Assembly: GCF_900113655.1 (NCBI RefSeq)
Contig: NZ_FOQF01000007.1
Location: 1 to 64,000, forward strand
Length of the DNA: 64,000 nucleotides
DNA from: Pseudobutyrivibrio sp. OR37
GTDB taxonomy: Bacteria; Bacillota; Clostridia; Lachnospirales; Lachnospiraceae
Reading direction: 5' to 3'
Shown: piece by piece, positions 690 through 34,366 of the stretch
How positions within the stretch are numbered: the first letter of the stretch is position 1
How the letters are laid out: each line of letters opens with the position of its first letter
Translations under genes and position numbers: made by a program
The notes under the pieces: model-generated
Database searches by the model: none
What the model saw: only the letters and a program-made list of their open reading frames with translations
Told to the model about the DNA's origin: nothing

Positions 690-826
690 GGGCTTTTCCA
701 ATTTACTTTTTCTCCCGGTTGTTACGCTCTCAAGCCTAAGTATTGCTTTCGTCGACTGGATGTCTCCTTCAGCAATTCTTATGCTTGATAGCTACAACCT
801 ATCTGTAGCTAATCTAGGAAAAGCCC
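690..826 (-). ncRNA. Structured RNA element B (family 1), rfbB leader
   Basis: Minus-strand hairpin of 137 nt. The outer stem GGGCTTTTCC/GGAAAAGCCC (817-826 with 690-699) is perfect. Inside are the family internal loop AGCUA/GAGCGUA and an apical unit G-GA-GAC-AUCCA-GUC-GA-C. The centre is nearly identical to element A at 3510-3638, but the outer stems differ completely in sequence while still pairing. It lies in the probable 5' leader of rfbB, directly before the ribosome site. Function unknown; a cis-regulatory RNA is the simplest inference. Confidence 0.6.
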
Positions 827-917
827 ATGTAATTAATATAAACTATTTATTCAATAATAATTCTTAAGAATTATTAAAGTTAACGATGTAATTGTTTAAG
901 ACACGGCTTGACGTTAT

Positions 918-1778
918 TTACGCGAGGTACTCGCGGAGGGCGTCGTGCCAGTCTGCCATGCGGTAATCTGTTGTGAGACGTAGCATGTAGTTATCAAGGA
1001 TGCTGTAATGTGGTCTGTCAGCGCTAGCAGGATTCATCTTTTTGTATTCCTCACTAGTAACGTGATTAACCTTTACATTGATTCCCTTGATTCGGAAGAT
1101 TTCCTCTGTGAAATCCGCCCAGTTTGTATCACCTTCACAGGTACCGTGGAAGATTCCATAGTTGTCTGTAGGCTCAAGATGATGAATCATTCTAGCAAGT
1201 TCTGCTGCTGATGTAGGTGAACCAAGCTGGTCACATACTACTGAAAGCTCGTCATGTGTCTCTGCAAGACTAAGCATTGTCTTAACAAAGTTCTTTCCAT
1301 CGCCGTAAAGCCATGCTGTACGAACGATAAACCACTTATCAGCAAACTGCTGAACGAATTTCTCGCCTTCGTATTTTGTTTTGCCGTAAGCACTGATTGG
1401 CGCTGGCTGGTCAAATTCTGTGATAGGCTTTGTTGCATTGCCAGGGAAAACATAATCTGTGCTAACATGAACAAGCTTGGCACCAACCTTTGTAGCCGCA
1501 ATAGCCAGGTTTCTAGGGCCAAGTGCATTAAGCTTATATGCAAAATCCCAGTCCTTTTCACAACCATCTACGTTTGTAGCTGCTGCGCAGTTGATGATTA
1601 CATCAGGCTTTTTATCCTGAACAAAATTTAGAACCTCGTCCAAATCCATAATGTTAAGAGGAGAAATCTTCTCGCCCTCAACAACGTCTGTTAGAATAAA
1701 TTCTACCTCATTGCCATATTCTTTCTGGATGGCTCGTCCAAGCTGACCGTTACAGCCTGTTACCAAAATTTTTCTCAT
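918..1778 (-). CDS. rfbD: dTDP-4-dehydrorhamnose reductase
   Basis: NADPH-dependent last step of dTDP-L-rhamnose synthesis. The 286-residue length is normal for RfbD. The N-terminal Rossmann motif is GCNGQLG (8-14), STDYVF is at 106-111 and the catalytic YGKTK has Tyr131 and Lys135. The start at 1778 follows AGAAGGAAG, which overlaps the stop codon of leuA, so rfbD appears to be translated in an operon with leuA (15 bp gap). rfbB follows downstream. The rfbA and rfbC partners are not in the window. Rhamnose is probably used for cell-surface or flagellar glycans, which is inference only. Confidence 0.95.
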   Translation of the reverse strand: MRKILVTGCNGQLGRAIQKEYGNEVEFILTDVVEGEKISPLNIMDLDEVLNFVQDKKPDVIINCAAATNVDGCEKDWDFAYKLNALGPRNLAIAATKVGAKLVHVSTDYVFPGNATKPITEFDQPAPISAYGKTKYEGEKFVQQFADKWFIVRTAWLYGDGKNFVKTMLSLAETHDELSVVCDQLGSPTSAAELARMIHHLEPTDNYGIFHGTCEGDTNWADFTEEIFRIKGINVKVNHVTSEEYKKMNPASADRPHYSILDNYMLRLTTDYRMADWHDALREYLA

Positions 1779-1793
1779 CTTTAATACTTCCTT

Positions 1794-3482
1794 CTATACA
1801 TAATCCTTTGCCTTAGCAATTAGGCGATTATACGCGCTAAACATACCGCGAATTGATGCACGAGTGATATTTGAGCTTACACCAACACCAAAGGTTGTGT
1901 TGCCATGACGCTCATCACGCATCTCAATATATGCAGCCGCCTTTGCTCCAGAACCCTGGCTCTGAGCAAGTGTGTGCTCACTATAATCAATAAGTGTGAA
2001 ATCAAGAGTTGGAACACACTGCTTGATAGCAAGCTTAACCGCATCGATAGGTCCATTACCTTCTGCCTCTGAATGGAAGTGCTCTCCATTGTATGAGAAA
2101 TCAAGGAATGCAACTGTATCATCAGTCTCCTTATCATCCTTGATAACCACATATTCAAGTGTAAGTGGCTGCTTATTCTCAAGATATGCATTTTTGAAGG
2201 CTTCCATAATGCGCTGAGGTGTAACCTCTCCACCATCTCTTTCAGAGATACGCTGAATAATATCAGCAAATTCACGCTGCATCTTCTTTGGAAGCTTGTA
2301 TCCATAAACAGTATCCATAACAAATGCAACGCCACCTTTTCCAGACTGGCTGTTGATACGAACCACTGGCTCGTACTTTCTACCAATATCTGCAGGGTCG
2401 ATTGGAAGATATGGAACCTCCCAATACATATTCTGGCGCTCCTTCATAGCCGCAACGCCCTTATTTATAGCATCCTGGTGTGAGCCAGAGAATGCAGTAA
2501 ACACAAGCTCACCTGCATAAGGGTGTCTTGCGTCTGTTGGCATTTTAGTAACTCGCTCACAAATCTCTACGATTTCCTTGATGTCCTCAAGATTAAGCTC
2601 TGGGTTAACACCCTGTGAGAACATATTGTAAGCAATTGTAAGTATATCTACATTACCTGTACGCTCGCCGTTTCCAAGAAGTGTTCCTTCCACACGGTCT
2701 GCGCCTGCAAGAAGACCAAGCTCCGTAATAGCTACGCCTGTTCCTCTATCATTATGTGGATGAATTGAAAGGACGATGTTTTCTCTATCCTTAAAATGTG
2801 TGCTCATCCATTCTATCTGATCAGCGTAAACATTAGGTGTATTCATTTCAACAGTTGCTGGCAAATTGAAAATAATTGGCGCATCTGTTGCATGGTCCCA
2901 GGTATCCTGCACCGCTGTACAAATATCAAGGGCAAACTCCACCTCAGTACCAGTAAAAGATTCTGGGGAATACTCAAGCTGAAGATTGCCATCGTATCTA
3001 TCAAGTCTATCCTTCACCATCTGTGTACCAGCTTTGGCGATTTCGATTATTTCGTCCTTGTCAGAATTAAATACTACATCACGCTGCAAGGTAGATGTTG
3101 AATTGTAAATATGGAAAATAACATTTGGAATTCCCTGAATTGCTTCAAAGGTACGGTCGATTAATTCCTCGCGGCACTGTGAAAGTACCTGTACCTTTAC
3201 ATCTGAAGGAATCTTATTTTCCTTAACAAGTTGTCTTAAAAAGTCATACTCAATTTGGCTCGCTGCAGGAAAGCCAATTTCAATCTCTTTAAAGCCTAGT
3301 TTTAGTAGGAGGTCAAATAGTTCCATTTTTTCGTCGACATTCATAGGTTCGACGAGGGCTTGATTACCATCACGTAGGTCTACAGAACACCACAATGGAG
3401 CTTTGGTGATTGTCTTATTAGGCCATGTACGCTCTGGAAACTGTAACACTGGGTTCGCTTTGTAACGCTTGTAGTTCAACAT
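1794..3482 (-). CDS. leuA: 2-isopropylmalate synthase, long (type II) form
   Basis: Condenses acetyl-CoA with 2-ketoisovalerate, the first committed step of leucine synthesis. The 562-residue protein has the HMGL-like TIM barrel with SVDLRDGNQAL near residues 33-43 and metal-binding HPHNDRG in the middle, then a C-terminal LeuA dimer/allosteric domain that usually binds leucine. I place the start at 3482 (MLNYKRY), preceded by AGGAGGAAGAATA; an in-frame ATG at 3512 has no ribosome site. The ~230 bp leader holds structured element A but no T-box or attenuator peptide that I can see. Its neighbours rfbD, rfbB and an HPr are not leucine genes, an unusual setting. Confidence 0.92.
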   Translation of the reverse strand: MLNYKRYKANPVLQFPERTWPNKTITKAPLWCSVDLRDGNQALVEPMNVDEKMELFDLLLKLGFKEIEIGFPAASQIEYDFLRQLVKENKIPSDVKVQVLSQCREELIDRTFEAIQGIPNVIFHIYNSTSTLQRDVVFNSDKDEIIEIAKAGTQMVKDRLDRYDGNLQLEYSPESFTGTEVEFALDICTAVQDTWDHATDAPIIFNLPATVEMNTPNVYADQIEWMSTHFKDRENIVLSIHPHNDRGTGVAITELGLLAGADRVEGTLLGNGERTGNVDILTIAYNMFSQGVNPELNLEDIKEIVEICERVTKMPTDARHPYAGELVFTAFSGSHQDAINKGVAAMKERQNMYWEVPYLPIDPADIGRKYEPVVRINSQSGKGGVAFVMDTVYGYKLPKKMQREFADIIQRISERDGGEVTPQRIMEAFKNAYLENKQPLTLEYVVIKDDKETDDTVAFLDFSYNGEHFHSEAEGNGPIDAVKLAIKQCVPTLDFTLIDYSEHTLAQSQGSGAKAAAYIEMRDERHGNTTFGVGVSSNITRASIRGMFSAYNRLIAKAKDYV

Positions 3483-3509
3483 TATTCTTCCTCCTAGTCT
3501 TGTATCTCG

Positions 3510-3638
3510 CATGCTTTCTACACTTTCTCTCGCTTGTTACGCTCTCAAGCCTGATTTTTGCTTTCGTCGACGGGGATGTCTCCTACAGCAAAACTCATGC
3601 TTGATAGCTACAAGCTATTTTTACCTTTTTTAGCATGC
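3510..3638 (-). ncRNA. Structured RNA element A (family 1), leuA leader
   Basis: Minus-strand hairpin of 129 nt upstream of leuA. The outer stem is GCATGCT/AGCATGC, then GCTTGT/ACAAGC, the internal loop AGCUA/GAGCGUA, the stem TCAAGC/GCTTGA, and the apical unit G-GA-GAC-AUCCCC-GUC-GA-C. It ends 27 nt before the leuA start. It is the closest relative of element B at rfbB. Whether it senses a ligand, binds a protein or only stabilises RNA cannot be told from the sequence. Confidence 0.6.
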
Positions 3639-3716
3639 TACTTTTTGTCTATATATGAATTTGTGGAACAATACCGTGATTGGATTGTCACAAAAACATT
3701 AACTGATTGGTAACAA

Positions 3717-3983
3717 CTATTCTCCGAGTCCTCCCTCGATTGAAGAAACGATATCTTCCAAGGCTTCCTCTTCGTCTTCACCTTCACAGGTGATGACTAT
3801 TTCTTCACCAGACTTTACACATGCGCCGAGGACGCTTAGAACTGATTTTGCGTTGGCTTCGTAGTGATTGTCTGTGTTAAAGCAAATCTTACTTTTATAT
3901 TTCATGGCAGTCTCGCACAAGACCCCTGCTGGTCTTAGATGCAAGCCTGTTGCATTAGCTATTTTAACTTTCTTTGAAACCAT
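3717..3983 (-). CDS. HPr-family phosphocarrier protein
   Basis: An 88-residue HPr-like protein with the phosphorylatable His15 in TGLHLRPAG and a regulatory-site-like serine at 47 (AKSVLSV). It shares only the family pattern with the second HPr at 43513-43776, which sits next to PtsI and is the likelier general PTS carrier. This copy is acidic at its end (GEDEEEALED). It lies between glmM and leuA, not next to any PTS gene, so it may be a Crh-like regulatory paralogue; that is inference. The start at 3983 follows AGGAT, and element C lies directly upstream. Confidence 0.85.
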   Translation of the reverse strand: MVSKKVKIANATGLHLRPAGVLCETAMKYKSKICFNTDNHYEANAKSVLSVLGACVKSGEEIVITCEGEDEEEALEDIVSSIEGGLGE

Positions 3984-4002
3984 ATCTTATCCTAGTCTGA
4001 AA

Positions 4003-4084
4003 CAAATCCTACGTTCACAATCGATTTTTTCTTTCAGTCACTAGATGTTCCTTACAGAACAAAAAAGATTGTTAACTGGATTTG
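4003..4084 (-). ncRNA. Structured RNA element C (family 1), HPr-paralogue leader
   Basis: Minus-strand element of 82 nt between glmM (stop 4093) and the HPr paralogue (start 3983). It has the outer stem CAAATCC/GGATTTG, the loop AGUUA/GAACGUA, the stem ACAATC/GATTGT, a U/A-rich helix, and the apical unit G-GA-AC-AUCUA-GU-GA-C. Stem sequences differ from A and B, but both internal loops match. No T-run follows, so it does not look like a plain terminator. Confidence 0.55.
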
Positions 4085-4092
4085 AATATGCT

Positions 4093-5442
4093 TTATAAAA
4101 TTGTCTTAGTAATCAAATCAGCGAGTGCGTGAGCGTCGGCCTCGATTTCCTCCTGGTTCTTGCCTTCAATCATTACACGTACAAGTGGTTCTGTACCTGA
4201 TGGGCGAATGAGTACACGGCCTTCACCAGCAAACTTTGCCTCAAGAGCTTCGATTGCCTTTGCAATCTCTGGATATTCCATGTAGCTCTCCTTCTTATGA
4301 TTTGGAACCTTGGCATTTACAAGAGCCTGTGGTAATACTTCCATGATAGATGCAAGGTCTGAAAGTGACTTGCCAGTCTCTACCATTACGCGAAGAAGGT
4401 GAAGTGCTGATAAAAGTCCATCACCTGTTGTGTTATCGTCTAAGAAGATAACGTGTCCACTCTGCTCGCCACCGATGTTGTAGCCATTTGCAAGCATATT
4501 CTCTAATACATATCTATCGCCTACTTTTGTAGCTTCAACGTTGATTCCCTGTTCCTTAGCCATTAGTGTGAAGCCAAGGTTTGTCATTACAGTAACAACG
4601 CATGTATTCTTCTTAAGTGTTCCTTTATCCTTCATGTGCTTTGAGCAGATAGCCATTACCTGGTCACCATCAACAAGGTGTCCCTTTTCATCTACTGCAA
4701 GCATTCTGTCGGCATCGCCATCAAAAGCTAAACCAACCTGAGCGTTCTCGGCAACAACTCTTGCCTTAAGCTCGTCCATGTGTGTACTTCCACAGTTTGA
4801 ATTGATATTTGTTCCATCAGGATTGTTGTGGATAGTGATAAGCTCTGCGCCCATCTCTGAAAGGCATGCAACGCTAGTTCTGTAAGAAGCGCCCTCTGCA
4901 CAGTCGATAACAATCTTAAGTCCTGATAAATCCATAGGTACTGTGTTCTTTAAGAAATCAACATACTCTCTACCAAGGTCAAATCTGTAATCTATCTTAC
5001 CAATTTCTGCACCTGTAGGAAGGTTTACACCTGCCATGTTGTTTTCGATAAGAGCCTGAATCTCGTCCTCTAATGCATCTGAAAGCTTGAAGCCTTCGCC
5101 ATTGAAGAACTTAATTCCGTTGAATTCCATAGGATTGTGGCTAGCTGAAATAACAACTCCAGCGTCAACCTTGTGCTTACGTGTAAGATAAGCGATAGCT
5201 GGTGTAGGAAGTACTCCTACATATACTGCATTTGCACCAACTGAGCAGATACCGCTCATAAGTGCTGATGCAAGCATTGTTCCTGAGATTCTAGTATCGC
5301 AACCTACGATAATTGTAGGCTGATGACTTGCTTCCTTTGTAAGTACATAAGCGCCTGCCTGTCCTAACTGCTTAGCAAGCTCGATTGTAAGTTCTGAGCC
5401 AGCTACTCCTCTGACTCCGTCTGTTCCAAATAATCTTCCCAT
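4093..5442 (-). CDS. glmM: Phosphoglucosamine mutase
   Basis: Interconverts glucosamine-6-phosphate and glucosamine-1-phosphate for UDP-GlcNAc and peptidoglycan synthesis. At 449 residues it has all four alpha-D-phosphohexomutase elements: the phosphoserine loop ISASHNP (Ser101), the metal loop DGDADR near 240, the sugar loop GGEQSGH near 327 and the phosphate loop RPSGTEP near 409. The start at 5442 ([12 protein letters not shown]) has AAAGGAG upstream, inside the end of cdaR, so the two are translationally coupled. It is the last gene of the cdaA-cdaR-glmM operon, a known Firmicutes arrangement in which GlmM can inhibit CdaA. Confidence 0.96.
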
Positions 5443-5443
5443 A

Positions 5444-6709
5444 TTACTCCTTTGTATCTTCTGCAGATGAATCATTCTCTGCAACATTTACCGTCACCGA
5501 TGTGTTTTGAATGGTGACTCCTTCAATATTTTCAAACTGTAAAACAGCATTTTGCGATTCTCCAACAGTAAGTCCAGAACAATCTACATAGCCTTTGACA
5601 TTCTTAGCATTCAAATCCGAAAGCACTGATTCGGTACCGAATACATTTACCTTAATATCATTACTATTAAGCTTTACAGATAATCCGTCAGGAATATTCC
5701 TTAATTCGATATTATCTGAAATAACATTTACAGTAGATGATGTCTCTCCTGCCATTAAAACTGTTATTGTAACCTTTGAGCTTGAGCTATCTGCCAAAGT
5801 TACTCCAGCAGGAAGATATGAACTGATATCTACCGTGGTGATGAAAGAACCTGTCAAATCTGAAAGGTTGATTACCGACTCTGGTATGGTGATACTTGTG
5901 ACATCGTTAAGAGCACTTGCTTCACCAATAATCATTACTGATGATGGATCAGTCTTTATAGAATCAAGTGATAAACCTTCTGGAAGTGTTCCGCTGGTTT
6001 TTACCACTACATCTACGGCCTTTGTATTAGAGAAAACTACGCTTACGCTTACAGTAGATACAGATAATGAAAGCTCTCTTGCATCTACCTCGTCTCCGCG
6101 TTCTGTATAAAACTTAGGAATAACACTCTCTGTAAAATTGGTACTTACTCCTGAGATATTAGCTGTAGCAACAACAGAATTAATGGTTGAAACCACTGCC
6201 TCTGGACCAGTAACTGTAAGTACAGTTGGACTGCATGTAACTGAGTCTACCGCCAAGCCTTCTTCTATCTTACCTGTGGTCTGAGCGCTGATAACAAATC
6301 TTTCTGTTTTTTCATCCTCCAGCACTACGTATAAATAGTTCTGTTTGCTGGAAATAGTGATGTAATTAGCGTAGGATTTTGCGGCAATAGTTACAGGAAT
6401 TCTTTCCTCGTTTTCCAGATTGTTCATATCTGCTACAGCAGAAAAATCTGAAGGTGAAAGCTTTTCTATGATAGAACGCTTTGCTGTAACTCTAAAGCTT
6501 ACCGTGTTAATTCCATCCTTTATTTCATATAGCTTGCCCGAGCTCTTAAGAACATCCGCATTGGTAACTGTAACAACAGAAGTGAAGGTTCTAGTCTGAG
6601 TTGGGTCATCAATATTGACCACTACAAGCCATAATAAAAAAGCAAAAATAAATGCTAATATTTTTAATCCGACGTCCTTGGTGAGGGCTTTGATAATGTT
6701 CTGCTTCAT
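5444..6709 (-). CDS. cdaR: CdaA regulatory protein with YbbR repeats
   Basis: A 421-residue membrane-anchored protein. One transmembrane helix lies near residues 14-32 ([19 protein letters not shown]), followed by an extracytoplasmic region made of about four YbbR repeats. CdaR proteins bind and modulate the diadenylate cyclase CdaA. The context proves the assignment better than the sequence alone: cdaA lies immediately upstream (1 bp gap) and glmM downstream. The C-terminus is acidic and probably disordered. Confidence 0.9.
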
Positions 6710-6710
6710 G

Positions 6711-7577
6711 CTACCCCTCCTTTTCCGTCATACCATTGCCAGCTTCATCTTCTGTATCCGGATTTTGAATCTTCTTAAGCTCAGCGATAAGCTCATCTTC
6801 TTTTACATCTCTAACAATTCGTCCCTCTCTTGCGTAGGAAACCTTTCCTGTTTCCTCAGAAACAACGATTGTTAGTGAATCAGACACCTCACTGATACCA
6901 ACAGCAGCTCTGTGTCTTGTTCCAAGATCCTTAGATAAAGCCATGTTATCTGAAAGAGGTAAATAACAGGTAGCGGAAACCACTCTGTCTCCTCTAACGA
7001 TAACAGCACCATCATGCAATGGTGTATTCTTTTCAAATATATTTATAAGAAGCTGTCTGGTTACAAGAGCATCAAGGCTGATACCTGTTCTCTCGAATTC
7101 AGTCAGCTGCATATCATTTTCAACAACAATAAGTGCACCAGTTTTAACTGCACCCATTTCATAACAGGCAGTTACCATTCCGGTAATTGTAGAATCATCG
7201 AACTTCTTAGCACCAGTCTTTAGTAGGTTCCAAGAAAACATTGATGTGATTTTTCTACGACCGATTTGCTCTAGGGCTCTTCGAAGCTCTGGCTGGAACA
7301 CTACGATGAGTACTGTTACCGCAACCGAGATAAATCTCTCACCCAACCACAAAATGGTGTTCATCTGGAATATGGCTGCAATCACAAAAAACAGCATGAT
7401 AATAAGGACACCTCTGATAAGCATCCAAACCCTGCTGTTTTTCACCCATATTAAAAGGTGATACATAAAATATGTAATTATGACAATCTCAATAACATCT
7501 GTGATGGAAACATCTGGAATATTTACATTGAAATAATCATCGATGAAGGCATCTACAGCATTCACGAAATCAACCAC
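6711..7577 (-). CDS. cdaA: Diadenylate cyclase (c-di-AMP synthase) CdaA
   Basis: Makes c-di-AMP from two ATP at the membrane. The 288-residue protein has three N-terminal transmembrane helices within residues 25-95 and a DAC domain with the catalytic DGA (189-191, HDGAVIV) and RHR (221-223, GTRHRAAVG) motifs intact. It uses a GTG start at 7577, placed 8 nt after AAGGAAG. It heads the cdaA-cdaR-glmM set; two unknown membrane proteins lie just upstream on the same strand. c-di-AMP usually controls potassium and osmolyte balance; no effector gene is in this window. Confidence 0.95.
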   Translation of the reverse strand: MVDFVNAVDAFIDDYFNVNIPDVSITDVIEIVIITYFMYHLLIWVKNSRVWMLIRGVLIIMLFFVIAAIFQMNTILWLGERFISVAVTVLIVVFQPELRRALEQIGRRKITSMFSWNLLKTGAKKFDDSTITGMVTACYEMGAVKTGALIVVENDMQLTEFERTGISLDALVTRQLLINIFEKNTPLHDGAVIVRGDRVVSATCYLPLSDNMALSKDLGTRHRAAVGISEVSDSLTIVVSEETGKVSYAREGRIVRDVKEDELIAELKKIQNPDTEDEAGNGMTEKEG

Positions 7578-7608
7578 AGATTCACTTCCTTACTACCCTT
7601 TTTGGGAA

Positions 7609-8520: not shown

Positions 8521-8523
8521 TAA

Positions 8524-13725: not shown

Positions 13726-13854
13726 GCAACACGCGTAGTTTTTCATGCTCCCGCAGGCCACCTCCCATTGCAGTCAAGGGAACCTCCCCTTCGGGGTCCC
13801 TCCTTAACTACATGGGGCCCTCCTGCTCGCGCTTGCCTAGACTATGTGTGTTGC
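13726..13854 (+). repeat. GC-rich structured repeat R1 (family 2)
   Basis: Outer stem GCAACAC/GTGTTGC encloses the conserved segments TGCTCCCGCAGG and CTGCTCGCGCTTGC plus inner stems around CTCCCAT/ATGGGG and CCCCTTCGGGG. The core is nearly identical to R2 (23565-23696). It is followed by TTATTTTTTG and lies 11 bp past the FliD-like stop, so it may also end transcription. Confidence 0.75.
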
Positions 13855-19601: not shown

Positions 19602-20084
19602 TTACTTCTTTTTATCCACAAATGCAGGGTCTGCAGTGGTCTGAGGGCTCATCATGTGCCTATAATATGATGAAACTACATCAGATGATTTTTTGATTTC
19701 ACGTGCCTCTTTTTTTATGTTTGCAAATCTGGTTTTGGCATACTCTTTATTTCTATATTCCGACGCTTCCACATCAGCAGTAAGTGCCGTAACCTTTTTT
19801 ATTAAATCCTGCATCAAGCGAATCTCATCTGCATAAGTTTCCCTATCTGCCTCGATAATATCCTTCACCCTATTAAATAATTGTTCAAAGCCATCATCAA
19901 GCATTACGATTCGCTCGATTAGCTCTGCCTTCATATTCATATTCTTCTCCAAATCATCTGGAGTAGAATTAGGATTCTTAAGAATTGCCTCCTGCTCCTT
20001 ATTCCTAATAGTAAGCACCCTAAGCACATCAGCTTTCTTCTCTAGCGATTCCCTAAGCATCACAACATAATCCATATTTTCCAT
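19602..20084 (-). CDS. Coiled-coil flagellar chaperone-like protein (FliT/FlgN type)
   Basis: A 160-residue, almost entirely alpha-helical protein with no signal peptide (MENMDYVVMLRESLEKKADVLRVL) and a glutamate/lysine-rich coiled coil to about residue 135. Length, composition and position after fliS suggest an export chaperone of FliT or FlgN type, but I see no diagnostic motif. The start follows AGGGGG. Structured element E lies 46 nt upstream. A separate FlgN is encoded at 29994-30506, so FliT is the likelier role. Confidence 0.55.
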   Translation of the reverse strand: MENMDYVVMLRESLEKKADVLRVLTIRNKEQEAILKNPNSTPDDLEKNMNMKAELIERIVMLDDGFEQLFNRVKDIIEADRETYADEIRLMQDLIKKVTALTADVEASEYRNKEYAKTRFANIKKEAREIKKSSDVVSSYYRHMMSPQTTADPAFVDKKK

Positions 20085-20129: not shown

Positions 20130-20224
20130 AGTCCGTATTCATTACGCAGACAATCATTATATTACTACGGTCAGCTTAGAATGCTTCCCTTTAGTAAAAT
20201 AATAGATTGTTTACTACGAGGACT
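20130..20224 (-). ncRNA. Structured RNA element E (family 1)
   Basis: Minus-strand element with stem ACAATC/GATTGT, loop AGUAA/CUGCGUA and apical unit G-GA-AGC-AUUCUAA-GCU-GA-C. The outer stem is AGTCC/GGACT with GTA/TAC. It ends 46 nt before the chaperone-like gene, the same placement as A-C. Its apex closely matches element F at 34269-34366. Confidence 0.5.
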
Positions 20225-20243
20225 CATCTAAAAATGTAACGAA

Positions 20244-20325
20244 CACTGGTAGGTAACAATTATTTATATACACAAGGAGCCACTCTCGCGACGGTGTATA
20301 TAAATGATTGTTACCGTAACCAGTG
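20244..20325 (+). ncRNA. Structured RNA element D (family 1), plus-strand copy
   Basis: Plus-strand element of 82 nt: outer stem CACTGGT/ACCAGTG, loop AGGUA/UACCGUA, stem ACAAU/AUUGU, long A/U helix, apical unit G-GA-GC-CACUCUC-GC-GA-C. It is 19 bp from element E and points the opposite way, antisense to the flagellar transcript. Together E, D and a hairpin at 20345-20364 fill the gap 20085-20372. Confidence 0.5.
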
Positions 20326-20344
20326 CACACAGCCTACATAACTA

Positions 20345-20372: not shown

Positions 20373-20783
20373 TTAACCTGCTATGTTTGTTTGCCCATCC
20401 ACCTTTTTGCCGTTGGCGGTGAGCTTCATTACATCCTTCCAAGTGTCGCGCATTGTACGCAGGTGCTTTAGCACCTCTTCCAATTCGTCTGGCTCCTTGG
20501 TTATCATGGCATGTCTCAAGCAGCTCCTAAGATAACTATACACTGCATGGAAATCTTTTGCCACTGGATATTTTTCATCGAGAGTAATTTCAAACTCTTC
20601 TATTATTCTATCTGTCTTGCGAATATTAATGTGAGCCTTTTCAATATCGTGATTTTCACAAGCTACAATTGCTATGTTACAAAATTTGATGGCTCCTTCG
20701 TACAGCATCAATGTCAACTCTGCTGGACTAGCTGTAAGTATTCTGTTTTTTGCATAAGCATCGTATCCGTTCATTGGTGTCAT
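20373..20783 (-). CDS. fliS: Flagellin export chaperone FliS
   Basis: Binds the C-terminus of unfolded flagellin and delivers it to the flagellar export gate. The 136-residue protein has the family pattern: NGYDAYAKNRILTASPAELTLMLYEGAIKFCNIA (residues 5-38), then helices with YPVAKDFHAVYSYLRSCLRHA. Start at 20783 is preceded by AAGGGGG. It directly follows fliD, the normal order. Together with the chaperone-like gene downstream, it is expected to be part of the flaG transcript. Confidence 0.95.
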   Translation of the reverse strand: MTPMNGYDAYAKNRILTASPAELTLMLYEGAIKFCNIAIVACENHDIEKAHINIRKTDRIIEEFEITLDEKYPVAKDFHAVYSYLRSCLRHAMITKEPDELEEVLKHLRTMRDTWKDVMKLTANGKKVDGQTNIAG

Positions 20784-23564: not shown

Positions 23565-23696
23565 GATACGGCTCGTAGTTTTCCGTGCTCCCGCAGGCCA
23601 TCTCCCATTGCAGCCAAGGGAACCTCCCCTTCGGGGTCCCTCCTTAACTACATGGGGCCCTCCTGCTCGCGCTTGCCAAGGTTATGAAGCCGTATC
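23565..23696 (+). repeat. GC-rich structured repeat R2 (family 2)
   Basis: Core nearly identical to R1 over about 100 bp, but with a different outer stem (GATACGGCT/AGCCGTATC). Plus-strand orientation, between the csrA terminator and the flaG promoter. With R3, the csrA terminator and the flaG leader it explains the 491-bp gap 23405-23895. Confidence 0.75.
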
Positions 23697-23773: not shown

Positions 23774-23891
23774 GCGGCCACACAACCTACGCAAGCGCGA
23801 GCAGGGAGGCACCATACCGAGTGAGGAGCTACTGCACCGGAGCGAAAGTATGGAGGGTGCCCTGCGGGAGCACGAAACCCTACGAGGCCGC
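23774..23891 (-). repeat. GC-rich structured repeat R3 (family 2, divergent)
   Basis: Minus-strand copy sharing the end motifs TGCTCCCGCAGG and CTGCTCGCGCTTGC with R1 and R2. It has a new outer stem (GCGGCC/GGCCGC) and a different but still paired inner stem (CCATAC/GTATGG). It begins 5 bp after the csrA stop. Confidence 0.7.
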
Positions 23892-28096: not shown

Positions 28097-28119
28097 AAGC
28101 TATTACCTCGTCATTCTGT

Positions 28120-29946
28120 TTACTGGTGTCCAAGTGATGTAATTAAATGCTCAATCATTTCATTTACTACATTTATATATCGGCTAGCTGCGTTATAAGC
28201 TGACTGATATTTAATCATTGTTGTAAGCTCTTCGTCGGAAGATACGCCGATAACGCCCTGGCGGCTAAATTCGATTTCCTCTCTGGTACCTTCAAGCGAA
28301 CGTTCTGTAGTCTTATAAACGTTACCTGTATTGGCCATCTCACCAATCCACTTAACATAAAATCCGTTGTAACCGCATGGTGTGGTATCACTTGGATTCA
28401 GGTGGAATTCTTGCTCGTTCCAAATAGCACTAAGTCTGATTCCTAAATCGTAATCTACAGCCCCCTTGTTATCTCCATATTTTAGATGAGGGATGTATGA
28501 TTCCTGCTTAATCAGTTCCTCATTTATGAAAGTGGATTTCAGTGTGTAACACTGTCCCAAATCCTCTGGGTTTTCCTCGTTGAATAAATATATGGTCTCT
28601 TCATGGCTTACATTTTCTGAATCCACATAAGTAAGCTTTGCCTCTTTATATCTGTCGCAGCCTACTCTTATGAACAATTCTCTTGGTGGAAGCTCCCCAT
28701 CAGAACCCACTGAACAGTGCACCTTATCAAGGATTCTTAGGTTTTGTGGAATATCTGCTCCAGTGACTGTTACTGTGTTTCCATCCTTATCAAGATATGA
28801 GTAGCTCAAATCCGACATTCCTAAATATGCGCTATCTAAAGTTGTAAGTGGACTATAAATATCATTTATATTTGTTGCCAGCTGATGAAAAAGTGTGTCT
28901 AGCTCCGACTCAGAATTCATCATAATGGAATTTGCTATTCCTGTCTTATAAGCATCTGATGTAAGTGGTGCGCCCTCTTCATCGAAGAAATCAAGATATG
29001 TACTCCAGCCTTCACCTCTGGCAAGAAGCAGAGCCTTTATCTCACCTATATCAGTGTTTTTATCTGCCGCAACATTTGTTGTATCAAACATTTTATAGTA
29101 GGTATTTAGAGACTCATCCTCCTCGCTAACGATTTCCGAAAGCTGAGGCCAGTATGGAGTAACATACTTTGTTCTCTTATCCTCTAGGGTTCCTACTGGG
29201 TAGTAATTAATATCATCGATAAACTCTACGCTTTCGATTTCTACATGAACCACGCCTGTGTGATCCTCGTTGTAGGAAATTTTAACCAAGCCTGAGAGCT
29301 CGTCCAAAAGCAAATCTCTCTTATCTCTAAGGTCCATGGCCTTTTCCACTCCTGCTGCTTCAATGGCCTGAATCCTCTTATTGTAATCAACAATCTTCTT
29401 TCCTATTTCGTTGATTCTATTCAAATCTTCCTTAATTTTGGAATTGATAATGGTCTGATAATCCTCAAAACCCTGCTGCACCGCCTTGCCACGGGCCAAA
29501 AAAAGACTAGCCTTCTGCAATACAAGGTTCTGCTTCACGGTATCAGACGGTTCCTTGGCGAATTCCTCAAATGCCACTTCGAAATCCCTAATGGCCTCCT
29601 TGAACGCCACGCCATCTACCTCCTGAAGATGTGTGTAAACCTCTTGTACTGCTTCAGAGCTAGCACTATAAAAAGAATATCGCCCATTCTCCTGACGATA
29701 TGCCTTATCTAAAAAGATATCGCGGTTATGGACGATTGTTCCTACCTGCACGCCAAGACCAGCATACTGTGTGCTGATCGCTGCGTTGCCTATTTTTCTA
29801 TATGTTCTATCTTCGTAAACAACCTGCTCACGTACGTAACCTTCGGTATTAACGTTAGTGAGGTTGTTTGCTGTTGTATTTAAACCATGTGATGCTGACT
29901 GTAGGCCCGATGCCCCAACATATAAGCTTCCAAAACTATTAGCCAT
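28120..29946 (-). CDS. flgK: FlgK-like hook-associated protein, copy 2
   Basis: A 608-residue paralogue with the same N-terminal helix (SLYVGASGLQSASHGLNTTANNLTNVNTEGYVREQVVYEDRTYR) but a C-terminus where SGVDEDDE is replaced by GVSSDEELTTMIKYQSAYNAASRYINVVNEMIEHLITSLG. The middle shares little with copy 1. Start chosen at 29946 after GGAGGG. The tandem arrangement between flgN and flgK1 suggests duplication and specialisation in the hook-filament junction. Confidence 0.88.
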   Translation of the reverse strand: MANSFGSLYVGASGLQSASHGLNTTANNLTNVNTEGYVREQVVYEDRTYRKIGNAAISTQYAGLGVQVGTIVHNRDIFLDKAYRQENGRYSFYSASSEAVQEVYTHLQEVDGVAFKEAIRDFEVAFEEFAKEPSDTVKQNLVLQKASLFLARGKAVQQGFEDYQTIINSKIKEDLNRINEIGKKIVDYNKRIQAIEAAGVEKAMDLRDKRDLLLDELSGLVKISYNEDHTGVVHVEIESVEFIDDINYYPVGTLEDKRTKYVTPYWPQLSEIVSEEDESLNTYYKMFDTTNVAADKNTDIGEIKALLLARGEGWSTYLDFFDEEGAPLTSDAYKTGIANSIMMNSESELDTLFHQLATNINDIYSPLTTLDSAYLGMSDLSYSYLDKDGNTVTVTGADIPQNLRILDKVHCSVGSDGELPPRELFIRVGCDRYKEAKLTYVDSENVSHEETIYLFNEENPEDLGQCYTLKSTFINEELIKQESYIPHLKYGDNKGAVDYDLGIRLSAIWNEQEFHLNPSDTTPCGYNGFYVKWIGEMANTGNVYKTTERSLEGTREEIEFSRQGVIGVSSDEELTTMIKYQSAYNAASRYINVVNEMIEHLITSLGHQ

Positions 29947-29993
29947 AAGTCTGCCCTCCAAGTTTACACTAAAACTCTAAGGACATCCTTTTC

Positions 29994-30506
29994 CTACTGT
30001 TTAGCATCAAATCCTCTATTACCCAAAATGTTTCCTGTAGTTTCAGCATTCTTTCCATAATTGGAGGTCTGTGGGGCTTGCTTTGAACTTTTGATAAGTG
30101 TTATATCAAACTCCACCATCTCTATAGCCATCTTTAGAAGATTCTGGGTTTGAAAATTCAATACCTGAACTTCATCAGCGGCTTTTACAAGCTTGTCCTT
30201 TGCAAGGCTAAGCTTCTTTTGCTGTACAGGTTGGTTTGCAAGATTATCAATCATCCATGACACTGTAACCTGCTCACCATCATGTCCCATAACTGCAGCA
30301 ATGTTCTGCAGTATGTTCAGACGTTTCTTCTCTAGTACGCACAAGGTATCAGCAATGGCCTGCTCCTTGACGGTAATATCTTCCAGTACGTCAAGCTTCT
30401 TATAGATAATAGAATCCTTCTTCTTACCATTAAGACTGATTAACTTTTCATACTGCTCCGTTTCACCATCCATAGTTAAGAGCAACTCATCCATTAAACT
30501 AGCCAC
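29994..30506 (-). CDS. flgN: FlgN-type export chaperone
   Basis: A 170-residue helical protein between flgM and the flgK genes, the standard place of flgN, the chaperone for FlgK and FlgL. It starts MASLMDELLLTMDGETEQYEKLISLNGKKKDSIIYKKLDVLEDITVKEQAI, matching the FlgN pattern of an N-terminal helix with a Leu-rich face, then a helical bundle and a disordered Gly/Asn-rich tail. Confidence 0.85.
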   Translation of the reverse strand: MASLMDELLLTMDGETEQYEKLISLNGKKKDSIIYKKLDVLEDITVKEQAIADTLCVLEKKRLNILQNIAAVMGHDGEQVTVSWMIDNLANQPVQQKKLSLAKDKLVKAADEVQVLNFQTQNLLKMAIEMVEFDITLIKSSKQAPQTSNYGKNAETTGNILGNRGFDAKQ

Positions 30507-30523
30507 GCCATACCCTCACTAAA

Positions 30524-30805
30524 CTAAAGAATTGATCCATACTGAGACAATAGCTTTTCAGCGAAATCGTCTGTGCTGACTTCGTAAGTACCGGCTTTAA
30601 TTCTAGCCTTGATATCAGCAACTAAGTCTTCTCTGATGTCCGCAGCCTCAGATACAGCGGCCTTTGCAACATGGTAATCACGGCCAGTAGATGAAATCTG
30701 AACCTCATCACGACCCATTCCATTTGCCTTAGATGCCTGTGTTACGTTTTTAGTGTTTGATGTTTGATAGAGCTGAGCTACCTGGTTGTAAGCCTCTATA
30801 CGCAT
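30524..30805 (-). CDS. flgM: Anti-sigma-28 factor FlgM
   Basis: Holds sigma-28 inactive until the hook is finished and FlgM is exported. The 93-residue protein has a disordered N-terminus and a C-terminal sigma-binding region (ADIREDLVADIKARIKAGTYEVSTDDFAEKLLSQYGSIL), as in the family. The ribosome site AAGGAGTGTGG is preceded by another GGAGGAAA. A consensus sigma-28 promoter upstream gives negative feedback. It heads the operon running to csrA. Confidence 0.93.
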   Translation of the reverse strand: MRIEAYNQVAQLYQTSNTKNVTQASKANGMGRDEVQISSTGRDYHVAKAAVSEAADIREDLVADIKARIKAGTYEVSTDDFAEKLLSQYGSIL

Positions 30806-30882
30806 ATCGCCACACTCCTTTCCTCCCTTTTTCTGTCGATTTTTGTCTAAATCTCAAGGTACATTTTTCTCTTTACACTTCA

Positions 30883-30910
30883 TTTATCGGTACCACTTAA
30901 GAAAACTTTA
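30883..30910 (-). promoter_or_regulatory. Sigma-28 promoter of flgM operon
   Basis: TAAAGTTT, 12 nt, CCGATAAA on the minus strand: textbook FliA/SigD promoter with the same spacing as the flagellin promoter. Confidence 0.87.
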
Positions 30911-30944
30911 TAGTATTTTTGAAATTTTTTCAATTTTTTATTTG

Positions 30945-30973
30945 TTGACACCTTTTTTACTTTGTGATATATC
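30945..30973 (+). promoter_or_regulatory. Sigma-A promoter of the ytrA-type operon
   Basis: TTGACA (30945-30950), 17 nt, TATATC (30968-30973) on the plus strand, back to back with the flgM promoter. Confidence 0.75.
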
Positions 30974-30994
30974 TGTATTAGAACACGTAATACA
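30974..30994 (+). promoter_or_regulatory. Operator for the YtrA/GntR repressor
   Basis: TGTATTA-GAACACG-TAATACA: perfect 7-bp inverted repeat directly after the -10 box, placed for autorepression by the regulator encoded next. Confidence 0.75.
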
Positions 30995-31029
30995 GTATAG
31001 GTCACACTGCCTAACACAGGAGGTATTAG

Positions 31030-31416
31030 ATGATCCAATTGAACTACAGAGATGCTAAGCCTATCTATGAGCAGATAAAGGATGGTCTTAGGAAGCTGGT
31101 AGTAACCGGAGCTGTGAAAACAGACGAAAAGCTACCTAGCGTGCGAGAGCTGGCCACCAGCCTCTCAATCAATCCTAACACTATTCAAAAAGCTTATAGA
31201 GAACTAGAGCAGGAAGGTTATATTTACACGATTGCAGGCAAGGGAAGTTATGCGGCTAAGAAAGCTGATGTTGCCTCTGGGAGGAACGAAGAATTGATGA
31301 AAGAATTCGATGAAATTGTAAAAGAACTTCTATATCTGTGTGAAGATAAGGATATCCTTATTAAACGAATTGAAGAGCTTGCGAAAGGAGGACCAAAGGA
31401 TGATAGAAGTAAATAA
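31030..31416 (+). CDS. GntR-family (YtrA subfamily) transcriptional regulator
   Basis: A 128-residue regulator: N-terminal winged helix (PIYEQIKDGLRKLVVTGAVKTDEKLPSVRELATSLSINPNTIQKAYRELEQEGYI) and a short C-terminal helical dimer region of the YtrA type with no ligand domain. Start follows AGGAGGTATTAG. Its end overlaps the ABC ATPase start by 17 bp. YtrA-type repressors usually control their own ABC operon, often in response to cell-envelope stress or antibiotics. Confidence 0.9.
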   Translation: MIQLNYRDAKPIYEQIKDGLRKLVVTGAVKTDEKLPSVRELATSLSINPNTIQKAYRELEQEGYIYTIAGKGSYAAKKADVASGRNEELMKEFDEIVKELLYLCEDKDILIKRIEELAKGGPKDDRSK

Positions 31417-32299
31417 TGTAACAAAGCGATTTGGCGATTTTGCTGCCCTTGATGGCTTAAACATGCACGTTGAACGCGGAGCTATCTATGGACTTGTTGG
31501 TCCTAATGGCGCAGGTAAATCTACTATTATTAGACACTTGAGCGGAGTCTACAAACAGGATTCGGGAGAAATCACTATAGATGGTCAGCCTGTTTATGAA
31601 AATGAAAAGCTTAAGCAGCGCTTCACAGTCATTCCTGATGAAATTTTCTTTTTCACTCAGGCCAATACCATGGATATGATGAAGTTTTACAAAACTCTTT
31701 ATCCTACCTTTGATGAAGGATTGTTTAAAAAGATATTAAGCTGCTTTCCTGAAATCAATCCTAAGAAAATGGTTAGAACACTTTCAAAGGGTATGCAAAA
31801 GCAGGTGGCTTTCATGCTTTCTATTGCTGCACGTCCTGAGCTTATGATTTTGGATGAGCCAGTAGATGGACTGGATCCAGTTATGCGCCGTCAGATTTGG
31901 AGTCTTATCATGTCTGATGTGGCAGAGCACGGCCTAACTGTTCTTGTAAGCTCACATAACCTTAGAGAGCTTGAGGATGTTTGTGACCATGTAGGAATCA
32001 TGAATCACGGCAAGATTCTCATTGAACGCTCATTGGACGAGCTGCAAACATCAATCACTAAAATACAGCTTGCTTTTGAGGATGAATTGCCTACTCTTCC
32101 ACCTGAAATTCAGGTGCTTAAAAGAGTATCAACAGGTAGAGTTCATACACTTATCGTAAAGGGAGAGCCAAGAGCTGCCGAACAGCGTATAGCCGCTTTA
32201 AACCCACTTCTTATGGATGTGCTCCCTCTTACACTTGAAGAAATATTTATTTATGAACTAGGAGGTGAGAATTATGCAGTCAAAGAAATCATTTTTTAA
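31400..32299 (+). CDS. ABC transporter ATP-binding protein (YtrB-like)
   Basis: A 299-residue ATPase with Walker A GPNGAGKST (about 34-42), a degenerate signature TLSKGMQKQVAF in place of LSGGQ, and Walker B LMILDEPVDGLDP. The C-terminal ~80 residues form an accessory domain as in bacitracin/YtrB-type exporters. The start at 31400 follows AAAGGAGG within the regulator gene; the frame extends 20 codons upstream without a better signal. It overlaps the permease gene by 26 bp. Confidence 0.9.
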   Translation: MIEVNNVTKRFGDFAALDGLNMHVERGAIYGLVGPNGAGKSTIIRHLSGVYKQDSGEITIDGQPVYENEKLKQRFTVIPDEIFFFTQANTMDMMKFYKTLYPTFDEGLFKKILSCFPEINPKKMVRTLSKGMQKQVAFMLSIAARPELMILDEPVDGLDPVMRRQIWSLIMSDVAEHGLTVLVSSHNLRELEDVCDHVGIMNHGKILIERSLDELQTSITKIQLAFEDELPTLPPEIQVLKRVSTGRVHTLIVKGEPRAAEQRIAALNPLLMDVLPLTLEEIFIYELGGENYAVKEIIF

Positions 32300-34256
32300 T
32301 CTGGCTCTGTTTAAGAAAAACATAAGCAGGACATGGATAGTCGGACTGTTATATTTCATCATTCTTCTTATTGTTATGCCAATACAATTTATTATTAATT
32401 TGGCTAATTTCGATGAGATAAATTATGAAGAGGGCTACACAAAAACTCTCAACTTAATAGACGACATTTCATATGTTCCTATAGGCGTATGGGGCATATT
32501 TATCGCGATTGCGGTAACAGGAATCACATTTTGGTATTTATTCTTCAAAAGAGATAATTACATGATGCATTCCTTCCCTGTCAGCAGACGTAGCCTTTAT
32601 TTTACTGGCTTAATTTCAAGTATTGTTGTATCTATCTTACCTGTCATACTTACAGCACTTGTTACAACAATAGTTGCAGCCGCTGAAAAGATTTACGCCT
32701 TCGACGTTATTTGGTTTTGGGCACTTGGCGTCAGCGCAACCACACTGCTATTTATTGGTATTGCAATAATCTCCCTTATGGCTTCTGGGCAGATTGTAAC
32801 CAGTATTATATTTTATGGTATCTTCAATTTCCTATATTTAATGATGGAAGTTGCGTTTAGAATTACAGCAAGCATATTGATGTTTGGTATGTCAAATGCT
32901 ATGAATAATATCAGCTATACACCACTCACACCGGTATTTTTCGTGGATGATGCCTGCAAGATTAAAGTATTTAAAATGTATGATAATCTTGGAAATATAA
33001 AAACCTATACTTATACTTTACCAGGCTTAAAATATTTACTTATCTATATAGCTGTTGCGATAGCCTTGATTGTTGTTTCCTACATACTTTATGAATTCAA
33101 AAAGCTTGAAACCGTACAGGATTTCATTGCAATCCCATTCTTAAAGCCTGTATTTACAATTGGAATGTCTTTCTTTATTTCAATGGTTGCAGGTGCTTTA
33201 GTGGCTGGAATGATTGAAGCGCTAAAGCCTATGTACTATAACACAAGATTTATTGTTGCAATTATATCTGCACTAGTTATAGGCTGTATTGTTTTCTATG
33301 CGACACAAATGTTAATCGAAAAGACATTTAGAGTCTTTTCAACAAAGAAGTTCTTCTTCTTGGCCGGTTATTCACTTGCATCACTAACAATGTTGATATG
33401 TCTACGAATGGACGTATTCAATGTTGAAAACAAAGTTCCTGATGCAGCCGATATTCAGTGGGTAGGAATCGATTCTAACTATGTAATGGTATTCTCTAGA
33501 CCTGAGGACATTTCTGCTGTAAGAGATTTGCATAAGAATTTCTTAAGTGACAAAAAGGAACTTAGAGATGTAAATAAAATTTATAATGATGTGGACAGCG
33601 GCTACTTTACAATCAAGTATAAGCTAAAAAGCGGAGGTTTCATTGAACGTACATACTCAGTAGTAAATACTGAATCTGATAAAGTTTCTGCTAACTACTT
33701 AGCTGCAACACAGCCAATCCTTGATTACCTGAACAACCCAACACGAATCAAGGAACACGTAATTGGTAACATTTGGGATGATTGCACTATCCCTGATTTG
33801 TCCTTTTCTCAATATGTATATAATGAAGAGGCTGACGATTATTGGCCTGAATATGCCGAATTCGAAACATTATCCGACAAAGAACTGACGGATAAAAACG
33901 AAAATATATATCAAGCCTTCCTTAAGGATATTGACGAAGGTAATGCGTTTGTGACTACATTCGGTGATAGATATAATAATACTGAACTTGCTAAAATCAC
34001 ACTTTATAATGATTTCAATTTCACAGTAGCCAATAATAAAAAAGAATATATCTCTGATGAGATGACTTTCTGGGATTGGTATGGTGATGACACTTATTAT
34101 CGAACTCCAGAATATGAAAGAAGCATCTTTGCTCAGCTAACCACAAACTGCACTAACACCCTAAAAGCCCTAAAGGATGAGGGATTCTACACAGACGACT
34201 CTCAAATAATAACAACCTACGAGTACAACAAGGCGATGGGTTACTTGGAAGAATAA
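32274..34256 (+). CDS. ABC transporter permease, six or more transmembrane helices plus large C-terminal domain
   Basis: A 660-residue protein with two helix groups: about residues 18-270 (six segments, including IIAFA-type helices) and 290-400. The last ~250 residues are hydrophilic and rich in Asp and Tyr, likely extracytoplasmic or cytoplasmic sensing. The ATG at 32274 follows GGAGGTGAGAATT. It forms an exporter with the ATPase upstream under YtrA-like control. The substrate is not evident; antimicrobial peptide or envelope-stress export is the usual role of such operons. Confidence 0.8.
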   Translation: MQSKKSFFNLALFKKNISRTWIVGLLYFIILLIVMPIQFIINLANFDEINYEEGYTKTLNLIDDISYVPIGVWGIFIAIAVTGITFWYLFFKRDNYMMHSFPVSRRSLYFTGLISSIVVSILPVILTALVTTIVAAAEKIYAFDVIWFWALGVSATTLLFIGIAIISLMASGQIVTSIIFYGIFNFLYLMMEVAFRITASILMFGMSNAMNNISYTPLTPVFFVDDACKIKVFKMYDNLGNIKTYTYTLPGLKYLLIYIAVAIALIVVSYILYEFKKLETVQDFIAIPFLKPVFTIGMSFFISMVAGALVAGMIEALKPMYYNTRFIVAIISALVIGCIVFYATQMLIEKTFRVFSTKKFFFLAGYSLASLTMLICLRMDVFNVENKVPDAADIQWVGIDSNYVMVFSRPEDISAVRDLHKNFLSDKKELRDVNKIYNDVDSGYFTIKYKLKSGGFIERTYSVVNTESDKVSANYLAATQPILDYLNNPTRIKEHVIGNIWDDCTIPDLSFSQYVYNEEADDYWPEYAEFETLSDKELTDKNENIYQAFLKDIDEGNAFVTTFGDRYNNTELAKITLYNDFNFTVANNKKEYISDEMTFWDWYGDDTYYRTPEYERSIFAQLTTNCTNTLKALKDEGFYTDDSQIITTYEYNKAMGYLEE

Positions 34257-34268
34257 GTAAAAATAAAA

Positions 34269-34366
34269 AGCCCCCCTAGTTACGGTCACAAGCCAAATTA
34301 TTTCTACGCTCAGCATAGAAAGCTTCGCTTAAGAAATATTTGAGCTTGTTACCTACTAGGGGGGCT
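34269..34366 (-). ncRNA. Structured RNA element F (family 1) merged with a two-way terminator
   Basis: Minus-strand element: outer stem AGCCCCCCTAGT/ACTAGGGGGGCT, loop AGGUA/GACCGUA, stem ACAAGC/GCUUGU, apical unit C-GA-AGC-UUUCUAU-GCU-GA-G. It ends in CTTTTTATTTTTAC on the minus strand after glcT and also has CATTTTTAC on the plus strand after the permease, so it likely terminates both. Its apex closing pair is C-G where the other five copies have G-C. Confidence 0.65.

What the first reader, a model, noticed from the sequence alone, without database searches (positions are those of the whole stretch)
690..34366. A six-copy family of structured intergenic RNAs with covarying stems (family 1)
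Elements A (3510-3638), B (690-826), C (4003-4084), D (20244-20325, plus strand), E (20130-20224) and F (34269-34366) share a hairpin plan. First loop, 5'/3' strands: AGCUA/GAGCGUA (A,B), AGUUA/GAACGUA (C), AGGUA/UACCGUA (D), AGUAA/CUGCGUA (E), AGGUA/GACCGUA (F). All 3' strands end in CGUA. The middle base of the 5' strand pairs with the third base of the 3' strand in every copy (C-G, C-G, U-A, G-C, U-G, G-C). The apex is always S-GA-stem-loop-stem-GA-S, with tandem GA facing GA; S-S is G-C five times and C-G in F. Stems outside the loops differ in sequence but pair. Such compensation points to selection on RNA structure, not to recent copying. I know no riboswitch with this pattern.
Basis: seen in the sequence. 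Interest (0 to 1): 0.88.

Follow-up and report, generated by a model that had tools for sequence, protein, structure and literature searches.

The report
Genus-specific mobile RNA hairpin repeat family
The six hairpins are real and belong to a large family of look-alike hairpins scattered between the genes of one genus of gut bacteria; they keep their shape while their letters change, they come and go from gene ends, and what they do in the cell is not yet known.

Summary
All six copies fold as drawn: outer stem, A/GUA internal loop, 3 bp, A·G step, long stem, tandem-GA apex. A covariance model from 26 copies finds exactly these six sites in the window and 59 in the genome. It hits 27 of 28 congeneric genomes and 0 of 198 other-genus genomes in a family-wide sample. 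All 80 listed named hits are Pseudobutyrivibrio. No Rfam match overlaps a copy. Stems covary strongly, also at single orthologous sites. Copying does happen: near-identical cores sit in unrelated but still paired stems, sites differ between species, and deletions leave scars. Downstream genes share no evident pathway. Copies are mostly sense to both neighbours and rare in divergent gaps. Best reading: a new REP/bcr-like interspersed repeat family constrained as RNA, probably acting as an mRNA-end or intercistronic hairpin and spread by an unknown route (no Y1 transposase in this genome). A protein-bound RNA regulon is possible but untested.

The parts
3530..3617 (-). Element A, in the gap between the HPr gene and leuA; loop A at 3609, GUA at 3540-3538; an extra outer stem (GCATGC) surrounds it
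   Evidence: R1 80.6 bits; sequence and fold; copies at the same site in other species
715..801 (-). Element B, in the gap between the rmlD-like gene (918-1778) and the dehydratase/epimerase gene (3-701); loop A at 793, GUA at 725-723
   Evidence: R1 83.8 bits; fold; Pfam of neighbours
4002..4085 (-). Element C, in the gap between the phosphoglucomutase-type (glmM-like) gene and the HPr gene; loop A at 4077, GUA at 4012-4010
   Evidence: R1 62.8 bits; 10 orthologous copies with compensatory changes
20243..20326 (+). Element D, antisense to both flanking genes, head to head with E; loop A at 20251, GUA at 20316-20318
   Evidence: R1 61.1 bits; context
20135..20223 (-). Element E, in the gap between the fliS-like gene (20373-20783) and ORF 19602-20084; loop A at 20215, GUA at 20145-20143
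   Evidence: R1 72.3 bits; fold
34273..34362 (-). Element F, between convergent genes, inside a GC-rich terminator-like stem followed by a T tract; loop A at 34354, GUA at 34283-34281
   Evidence: R1 83.3 bits; near-identical core in another stem in the same genome; inverted or absent in some relatives
1794..3512 (-). leuA (2-isopropylmalate synthase), gene after A
   Evidence: Pfam HMGL-like, IPMS_D2, LeuA_dimer
3717..3983 (-). HPr gene, between C and A
   Evidence: Pfam PTS-HPr
34378..35220 (-). gene whose 3' end carries F (PRD/CAT_RBD antiterminator-type protein)
   Evidence: Pfam PRD, CAT_RBD

Best explanation
This is a family of interspersed hairpin repeats confined, as far as tested, to the genus Pseudobutyrivibrio (tens of copies per genome in most species searched). 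SHOWN: each copy is a core of about 70 nt (A-[3 bp]-A·G step-long stem-apex, mostly with tandem GA-GUA) held in an outer stem. At two orthologous sites the pairing is kept while stem letters change together. Copies lie mostly between co-directional genes in sense, some in stems between convergent genes, rarely in divergent gaps. Near-identical cores occur in unrelated outer stems; sites are occupied or not in different species; losses occur by deletion. INFERRED: the hairpins are transcribed as part of mRNAs and act in cis as mRNA-end or intercistronic hairpins (termination, protection from nucleases, or processing), with the conserved A/GUA and tandem-GA modules contacted by a host RNA-binding factor. 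The family spreads as a palindromic module by a mechanism not identified here. In lifestyle it works like REP/BIME or bcr elements.
For: Model R1 from 26 copies: 59 sites in the genome on the RNA strand (E<=1.1e-5; the other 9 of the 68 listed rows are the same sites on the other strand). 27 of 28 congeners hit, 0 of 32 genomes of other genera; 0 of 198 other-genus genomes of the family. All 80 listed of at least 112 named stretches are Pseudobutyrivibrio. Covariation: 25 of 30 pairs changed on both sides, score 0.553 vs 0.168 shuffled and at most 0.161 slid; at the C locus 0.440 vs 0.176 shuffled and at most 0.083 slid, with all 7 outer pairs changed on both sides and the G-C next to A/GUA turned into A-U in two species; at the leuA locus 0.392 vs 0.138 shuffled and at most 0.117 slid. 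Loop and GA columns 96% and 94% conserved where outer-stem columns are 76% and 83%. Context of 139 copies by a simple ORF caller: 77 co-directional sense, 16 antisense, 20 convergent, 1 divergent, 25 not classified. In named loci, gaps with a copy vs gaps of 60 nt or more without: divergent 2 of 73 vs 29 of 163, p=0.0008; convergent 16 of 73 vs 11 of 163, p=0.0015. Same core in different stems. Presence/absence and deletion scars at leuA, HPr, aroK, xpt and F sites. Nested copies.
Against: No transcript data are held, so transcription is inferred from position. At the five sites compared (leuA, HPr, aroK, xpt, F) I saw no clean target duplication, and no transposase was linked (Y1_Tnp absent in this genome; in 10 of 29 genus genomes, not tracking copy number), so active mobility is inferred; gene conversion could explain part of the core sharing. 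One of five measures at the C locus (number of further pair types, 11 vs 11.3 shuffled) does not exceed the shuffles. The GA apex was not recognised in 28 of 139 copies, and the A/GUA loop is altered in one C-locus copy (G006) and one leuA copy (G003). In the pattern-defined set the AG and CGUA letters are fixed by the pattern, so their invariance there is no evidence. A terminator shape at convergent sites is clear in only 5 of 20 (stem of 8 or more bp plus T-rich tail). loci were not de-duplicated, and the comparison leaves out 186 gaps under 60 nt (170 co-directional, 14 convergent, 2 divergent).
Confidence: 0.72

Rival explanations
1. A cis-regulatory RNA regulon: the hairpin is the binding site of a genus-specific RNA-binding protein or small molecule that controls the downstream genes, like a riboswitch or a protein-bound leader.
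For: Conserved non-canonical modules at orthologous sites; G·U over A·C excess; 77 vs 16 sense bias; median 28 nt from outer stem to the start codon in 77 sense copies; structural conservation at orthologous loci.
Against: Downstream genes look unrelated (cysK, leuA, HPr, prfB, polA, der, purE, SMC, DHFR and others; names judged by me from the N-terminal sequences). Orthologous sites are often empty (10 of 27 at leuA, one more with a remnant). Only 1 of 114 classified copies lies in a divergent gap, where leaders of transcription units would also lie. No expression platform was recognised by eye.
Confidence: 0.3
2. Purely selfish DNA palindromes (MITE or REP type) whose RNA shape is a by-product of palindromy needed for transposition.
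For: Copy number 0 to at least 73 (a cap of the search) between congeners; near-identical dispersed copies; nested copies; deletion between short direct repeats.
Against: Palindromy alone explains neither the sense bias (p=1e-10) nor the G·U over A·C excess (24 to 6, p=0.0014), nor compensatory change at fixed orthologous sites. No transposase partner was found, though only the Y1 family was searched. No clear target duplication was seen at five sites.
Confidence: 0.3
3. Ordinary terminators and attenuator hairpins that look alike by convergence.
For: Copies between convergent genes carry longer stems, and some a T-rich tail.
Against: Conserved core of about 70 nt with R1 scores up to 98 bits; most sense copies lack a T tract (2 of 78 with stem of 8 or more bp and a T-rich tail); simple core-less terminators occupy the same sites in some relatives.
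Confidence: 0.03

Closest known systems
bcr1-bcr18 interspersed repeats of the Bacillus cereus group (PMC3446304, 7 passages seen; the original bcr papers recalled, not read)
   Same: Restricted to a taxonomic group, tens of copies, intergenic, about half found in transcripts as parts of UTRs or operon gaps, some with conserved secondary structure, high-copy ones called MITE-like
   Different: No sequence relation was tested; here the core has A/GUA and tandem-GA modules, a sense bias, and sits in variable terminator-like stems; transcription is not shown here
REP palindromes with GTAG tag and RAYT transposase (PMC3733652, 12 passages seen, one of them from the abstract)
   Same: Dispersed palindromes mostly after genes, plausibly transcribed, dimers common, GT pairing noted in stems
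   Different: REPs are 20-40 bp with a GTAG tag not involved in pairing and are linked to IS200/IS605-type transposases; here the element is about 86 nt, the G and T of 'GTAG' are paired and replaced in some copies (window C), and this genome has no Y1 hit
Protein-bound RNA hairpins and riboswitches (recalled)
   Same: Conserved non-canonical loop modules, structure kept by compensation, position near Shine-Dalgarno sequences
   Different: No shared pathway downstream, no switch seen, few copies where transcription-unit leaders lie

Membership tests
Any Rfam 15 family | Covariance-model score at or near gathering threshold over a copy | tested here: not met
   0 gathering hits in the window; none of the 10 hits at E<=10 in the window or of the 6 in 10 loci with copies overlaps a copy
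GTAG REP | Short (20-40 bp) palindrome with a GTAG tag outside the pairing | tested here: not met
   86-position element; the T and G before AG pair in the outer stem and are replaced in some copies (G at -2 in 143 and T at -1 in 155 of 163; pairing)
GTAG REP | RAYT / Y1 transposase in the genome | tested here: not met
   0 in own genome; in 10 of 29 genus genomes, with copy-rich genomes lacking it; no copy found by pattern in the 4 Y1 loci fetched
REP/BIME lifestyle | Found in gaps after genes, rarely in divergent gaps (recalled for enterobacterial REPs) | tested here: met
MITE | Terminal inverted repeats and target-site duplication, related autonomous transposon | tested here: inconclusive
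   One leuA comparison would allow a TA duplication, the other sites compared do not show one; the whole core is palindromic; only the Y1 transposase family was searched for as a partner
Riboswitch / leader regulon | Linked to genes of one pathway, in 5' leaders of transcription units | tested here: not met
   Genes look unrelated (38 sense copies of this genome); 1 divergent of 114 classified
Kink-turn | Tandem sheared G·A directly after a 3-nt bulge on one strand (recalled) | tested here: not met
   A base pair (S-S) flanks the tandem GA on both strands in 98 of 139 copies; the unpaired A residues lie beyond that pair (read)
bcr-type repeats | Demonstrated transcription as part of UTRs | not testable with these tools

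The most novel reading that the evidence does not exclude
The core is a mobile RNA-recognition module: one genus-specific RNA-binding factor reads the A/GUA and tandem-GA modules on dozens of unrelated mRNAs, and the module spreads by being placed into the loops of existing hairpins, terminators and older copies of itself, rewiring mRNA ends of the genus.
Probability: 0.22. Interest if true: 0.8.

Novelty: new variant of a known kind. Interest (0 to 1): 0.52.

Why it matters
Interspersed structured repeats are often treated as DNA palindromes. This family shows, at two orthologous sites, that pairing is kept by paired changes, while near-identical cores also turn up in unrelated host hairpins. 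That makes it a good test case for how mobile hairpins become, or act as, mRNA elements. It is also a family without an Rfam match that explains many gene gaps in Pseudobutyrivibrio genomes.

Tried and rejected
RAYT/IS200-IS605 mobilisation: no Y1_Tnp in own genome, 10 of 29 genus genomes without tracking copy number. No other transposase family was searched. Phage or plasmid origin: two strict patterns found nothing in viral contigs and element F nothing in plasmids. Known RNA family: none over a copy. Conserved pathway downstream: none seen. An exact GTA target duplication around the core was considered and dropped because the 5' side is only A in several copies. The second GC-rich repeat family has its hallmark within 150 nt upstream of 9 of 139 copies, so it is not part of the element. 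The model's low score on the opposite strand is not used as evidence of polarity, since the model was built on one strand.

Paper searches: Pseudobutyrivibrio with intergenic, repeat and stem-loop (0 papers); bcr1 (5 listed); Butyrivibrio/palindromic/repetitive/intergenic (10 of 823 listed); Pseudobutyrivibrio with noncoding RNA (10 listed) or MITE (5 listed), none on this by title and abstract start; candidate motifs with tandem GA (3 listed). Of these only PMC3446304, PMC3733652 and PMC12306157 were opened, for passages. The library holds open-licence PMC papers only, so absence from print is not shown.

Rows dropped and limits: of the 36 pattern hits 30 had loci; A3/R1 used 26, leaving out L016 (coding false positive), L007 (no GA apex), L015 and L024 (longer apex), and the 6 without loci. 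The first alignment had 7 rows on the wrong strand and was replaced. The 139-copy set still contains L016. One search saw 42 of 59 copies. A5 and A6 hold only copies the model could still find; the two 157-nt leuA variants (G013, G016) and the copies at contig ends were left out of A6. Copy counts stop at 73 scored candidates per genome and at 22, and both used stricter filters.
Full report
CHECK. The loop is best written as an internal loop with A on the 5' strand and GUA on the 3' strand, between an outer stem (P1, 6 bp in 89 of 163 copies) and a 3-bp stem whose middle pair is free to vary, followed by an A·G (or A-U, A·A) step, a long stem and an apex with GA facing GA. A loose pattern finds 6 of 6 copies in the window and none in 100 shuffles; in the genome it finds 36 places against 3 for the reversed pattern, one of the 36 being coding sequence (L016). 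A covariance model from 26 genome copies finds the six and, besides them, only the opposite strands of two. Rfam 15 has no gathering hit in the window, and no hit at E<=10 overlaps a copy there or in ten further loci with copies.

EXTENT. The genome (3.56 Mb, 81 contigs) holds 59 copies on the RNA strand at E<=1.1e-5; the remaining 9 of 68 listed rows are the same sites on the other strand. A sample of 200 genomes of the family, one per genus but for this genus, gives hits in 2 of 2 of this genus and 0 of 198 of the others. Viral contigs gave none with two strict patterns, plasmids none with F.

STRUCTURE IS SELECTED. On the 26-copy alignment 25 of 30 pairs change on both sides and the covariation score is 0.553, against 0.168 in shuffles and at most 0.161 when partners are slid. 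Paralogues alone could mislead, so two orthologous sites were tested. At the glmM-HPr gap (element C; 10 species, 8 distinct rows) 98.7% of cells pair, all seven outer pairs show changes on both sides, the G-C beside A/GUA is A-U in two species, and the score is 0.440 against 0.176 shuffled and at most 0.083 slid; one of the five measures, further pair types, is no higher than in shuffles (11 vs 11.3). At the leuA gap (element A; 13 copies, 12 distinct) the score is 0.392 against 0.138 shuffled and at most 0.117 slid. Loop and GA columns are 96% and 94% conserved there, the outer stem 76% and 83%; one copy at each site has an altered A/GUA loop. Among 139 copies below 90% identity, six P1 positions give 792 Watson-Crick, 15 G·U, 5 A·C and 22 other of 834. 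The free middle pair gives 118, 9, 1 and 11. Together G·U outnumbers A·C 24 to 6 on this strand (p=0.0014). The GA...GA apex with a Watson-Crick S pair is found in 98 of 139 copies and 217 of 2780 shuffles; in 28 of 139 no such apex was recognised.

CONTEXT. By a simple ORF caller, of the 139 copies 77 lie between co-directional genes in sense, 16 antisense (p=1e-10), 20 between convergent genes and 1 between divergent genes; 22 had short flanks, 1 had Ns and 2 fell in a predicted ORF, one of them the false positive L016. In named loci (not de-duplicated), gaps with a copy are divergent in 2 of 73 and convergent in 16 of 73, against 29 and 11 of 163 gaps of at least 60 nt without one (p=0.0008 and 0.0015). 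In sense copies the median distance from the outer stem to the next start codon is 28 nt, but the scarcity in divergent gaps says that the copies follow genes rather than start transcription units. In this genome 38 of 59 copies are in sense between co-directional genes, 10 convergent, 7 antisense, 1 divergent and 3 with no downstream gene called. The downstream genes show no common theme by their N-terminal sequences (names from my knowledge of the families); Pfam names seven of nine neighbours examined in the window.

COPIES MOVE OR ARE COPIED. Among 42 of the 59 copies compared, F and the copy after aroK have about 96% the same core but sit in unrelated, still paired stems (GAGCCCCCCTAGT and AAAGCCATCTAGT); so do the copies L015 and L216 (about 95%); L009 and L010 share about 97%. 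At the F site (nine loci read) this genome and G008 carry F as here, G006 and G025 carry nearly the same core inverted in another stem, G018 has that other stem without a core (its loop may be a remnant), G001, G021 and G007 have simple hairpins, and G023 could not be read. At aroK (28 loci) G023 has the same stem as this genome with the core lost between two GTAAC repeats; at xpt (26 loci) G008 keeps a partial core. Other species have other cores in other stems or plain terminators at both sites. At leuA, of 27 loci read, 16 have a copy (one cut by a contig end), 1 a remnant and 10 none. Copies nested in older copies occur; 5 of 163 show both flanking halves, some of them orthologues of each other. 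No clean target duplication was seen, so insertion, gene conversion and template switching are not told apart. Y1 transposases are absent here and do not track copy number in the genus; other transposases were not searched.

HOW IT PROBABLY WORKS. Shown: a conserved fold, retention with compensation at two orthologous sites, position after genes, turnover. Inferred: the hairpins are part of mRNAs; between convergent genes the outer stem is, in some copies, a terminator (stem of 8 or more bp and T-rich tail in 5 of 20, against 2 of 78 sense copies); in operon gaps they may protect or process mRNA. Why A/GUA and tandem GA are kept is best explained by a contact with a protein or the ribosome, but no partner is known.

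COMPARISON AND NOVELTY. Lifestyle resembles REP palindromes (PMC3733652, 12 passages seen) and bcr repeats of Bacillus cereus (PMC3446304, 7 passages seen). REP membership fails on size, tag pairing and transposase. In the RepRanger paper (PMC12306157) a term search found no mention of Butyrivibrio. I rate it a new variant of a known kind: a genus-specific interspersed repeat family whose core is an RNA-structured module. The claim 'not recent copying' should be dropped; the claim of selection on structure stands.

Noticed in passing
window 13734-13846, 23574-23686, inverted parts 23775-23886: A second, GC-rich repeat family (94% between two copies); its hallmark lies within 150 nt upstream of 9 of 139 family-1 copies.
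   Followed up: partly
window 63193-63281: Long imperfect AT-rich palindrome, 42-nt arms, with a third related stretch at 62368.
   Followed up: no
window 3500-3990 versus G001 and G008: The end of the HPr gene and the A element differ between this genome and near relatives although LeuA is 98-100% identical, which suggests recombination of this segment.
   Followed up: partly
L233 3232-3388 and L234 1314-1470: leuA-gap copies in two species with an apex extended to 157 nt by further sequence.
   Followed up: no
L127, L199, L135, L138: A full core sits at the tip of the inner stem of another copy, giving two stacked A/GUA loops in one hairpin.
   Followed up: partly
G010 leuA, L249: leuA matches in pieces, some with stops, in this relative's assembly; may be an assembly or sequencing fault.
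   Followed up: no
G004, G007, G020: The three congeners with fewest copies (5, 1 and 0) are 91%, 87% and 87% identical in LeuA; the latter two are the most diverged full-length ones, so the family may have expanded after their split.
   Followed up: no
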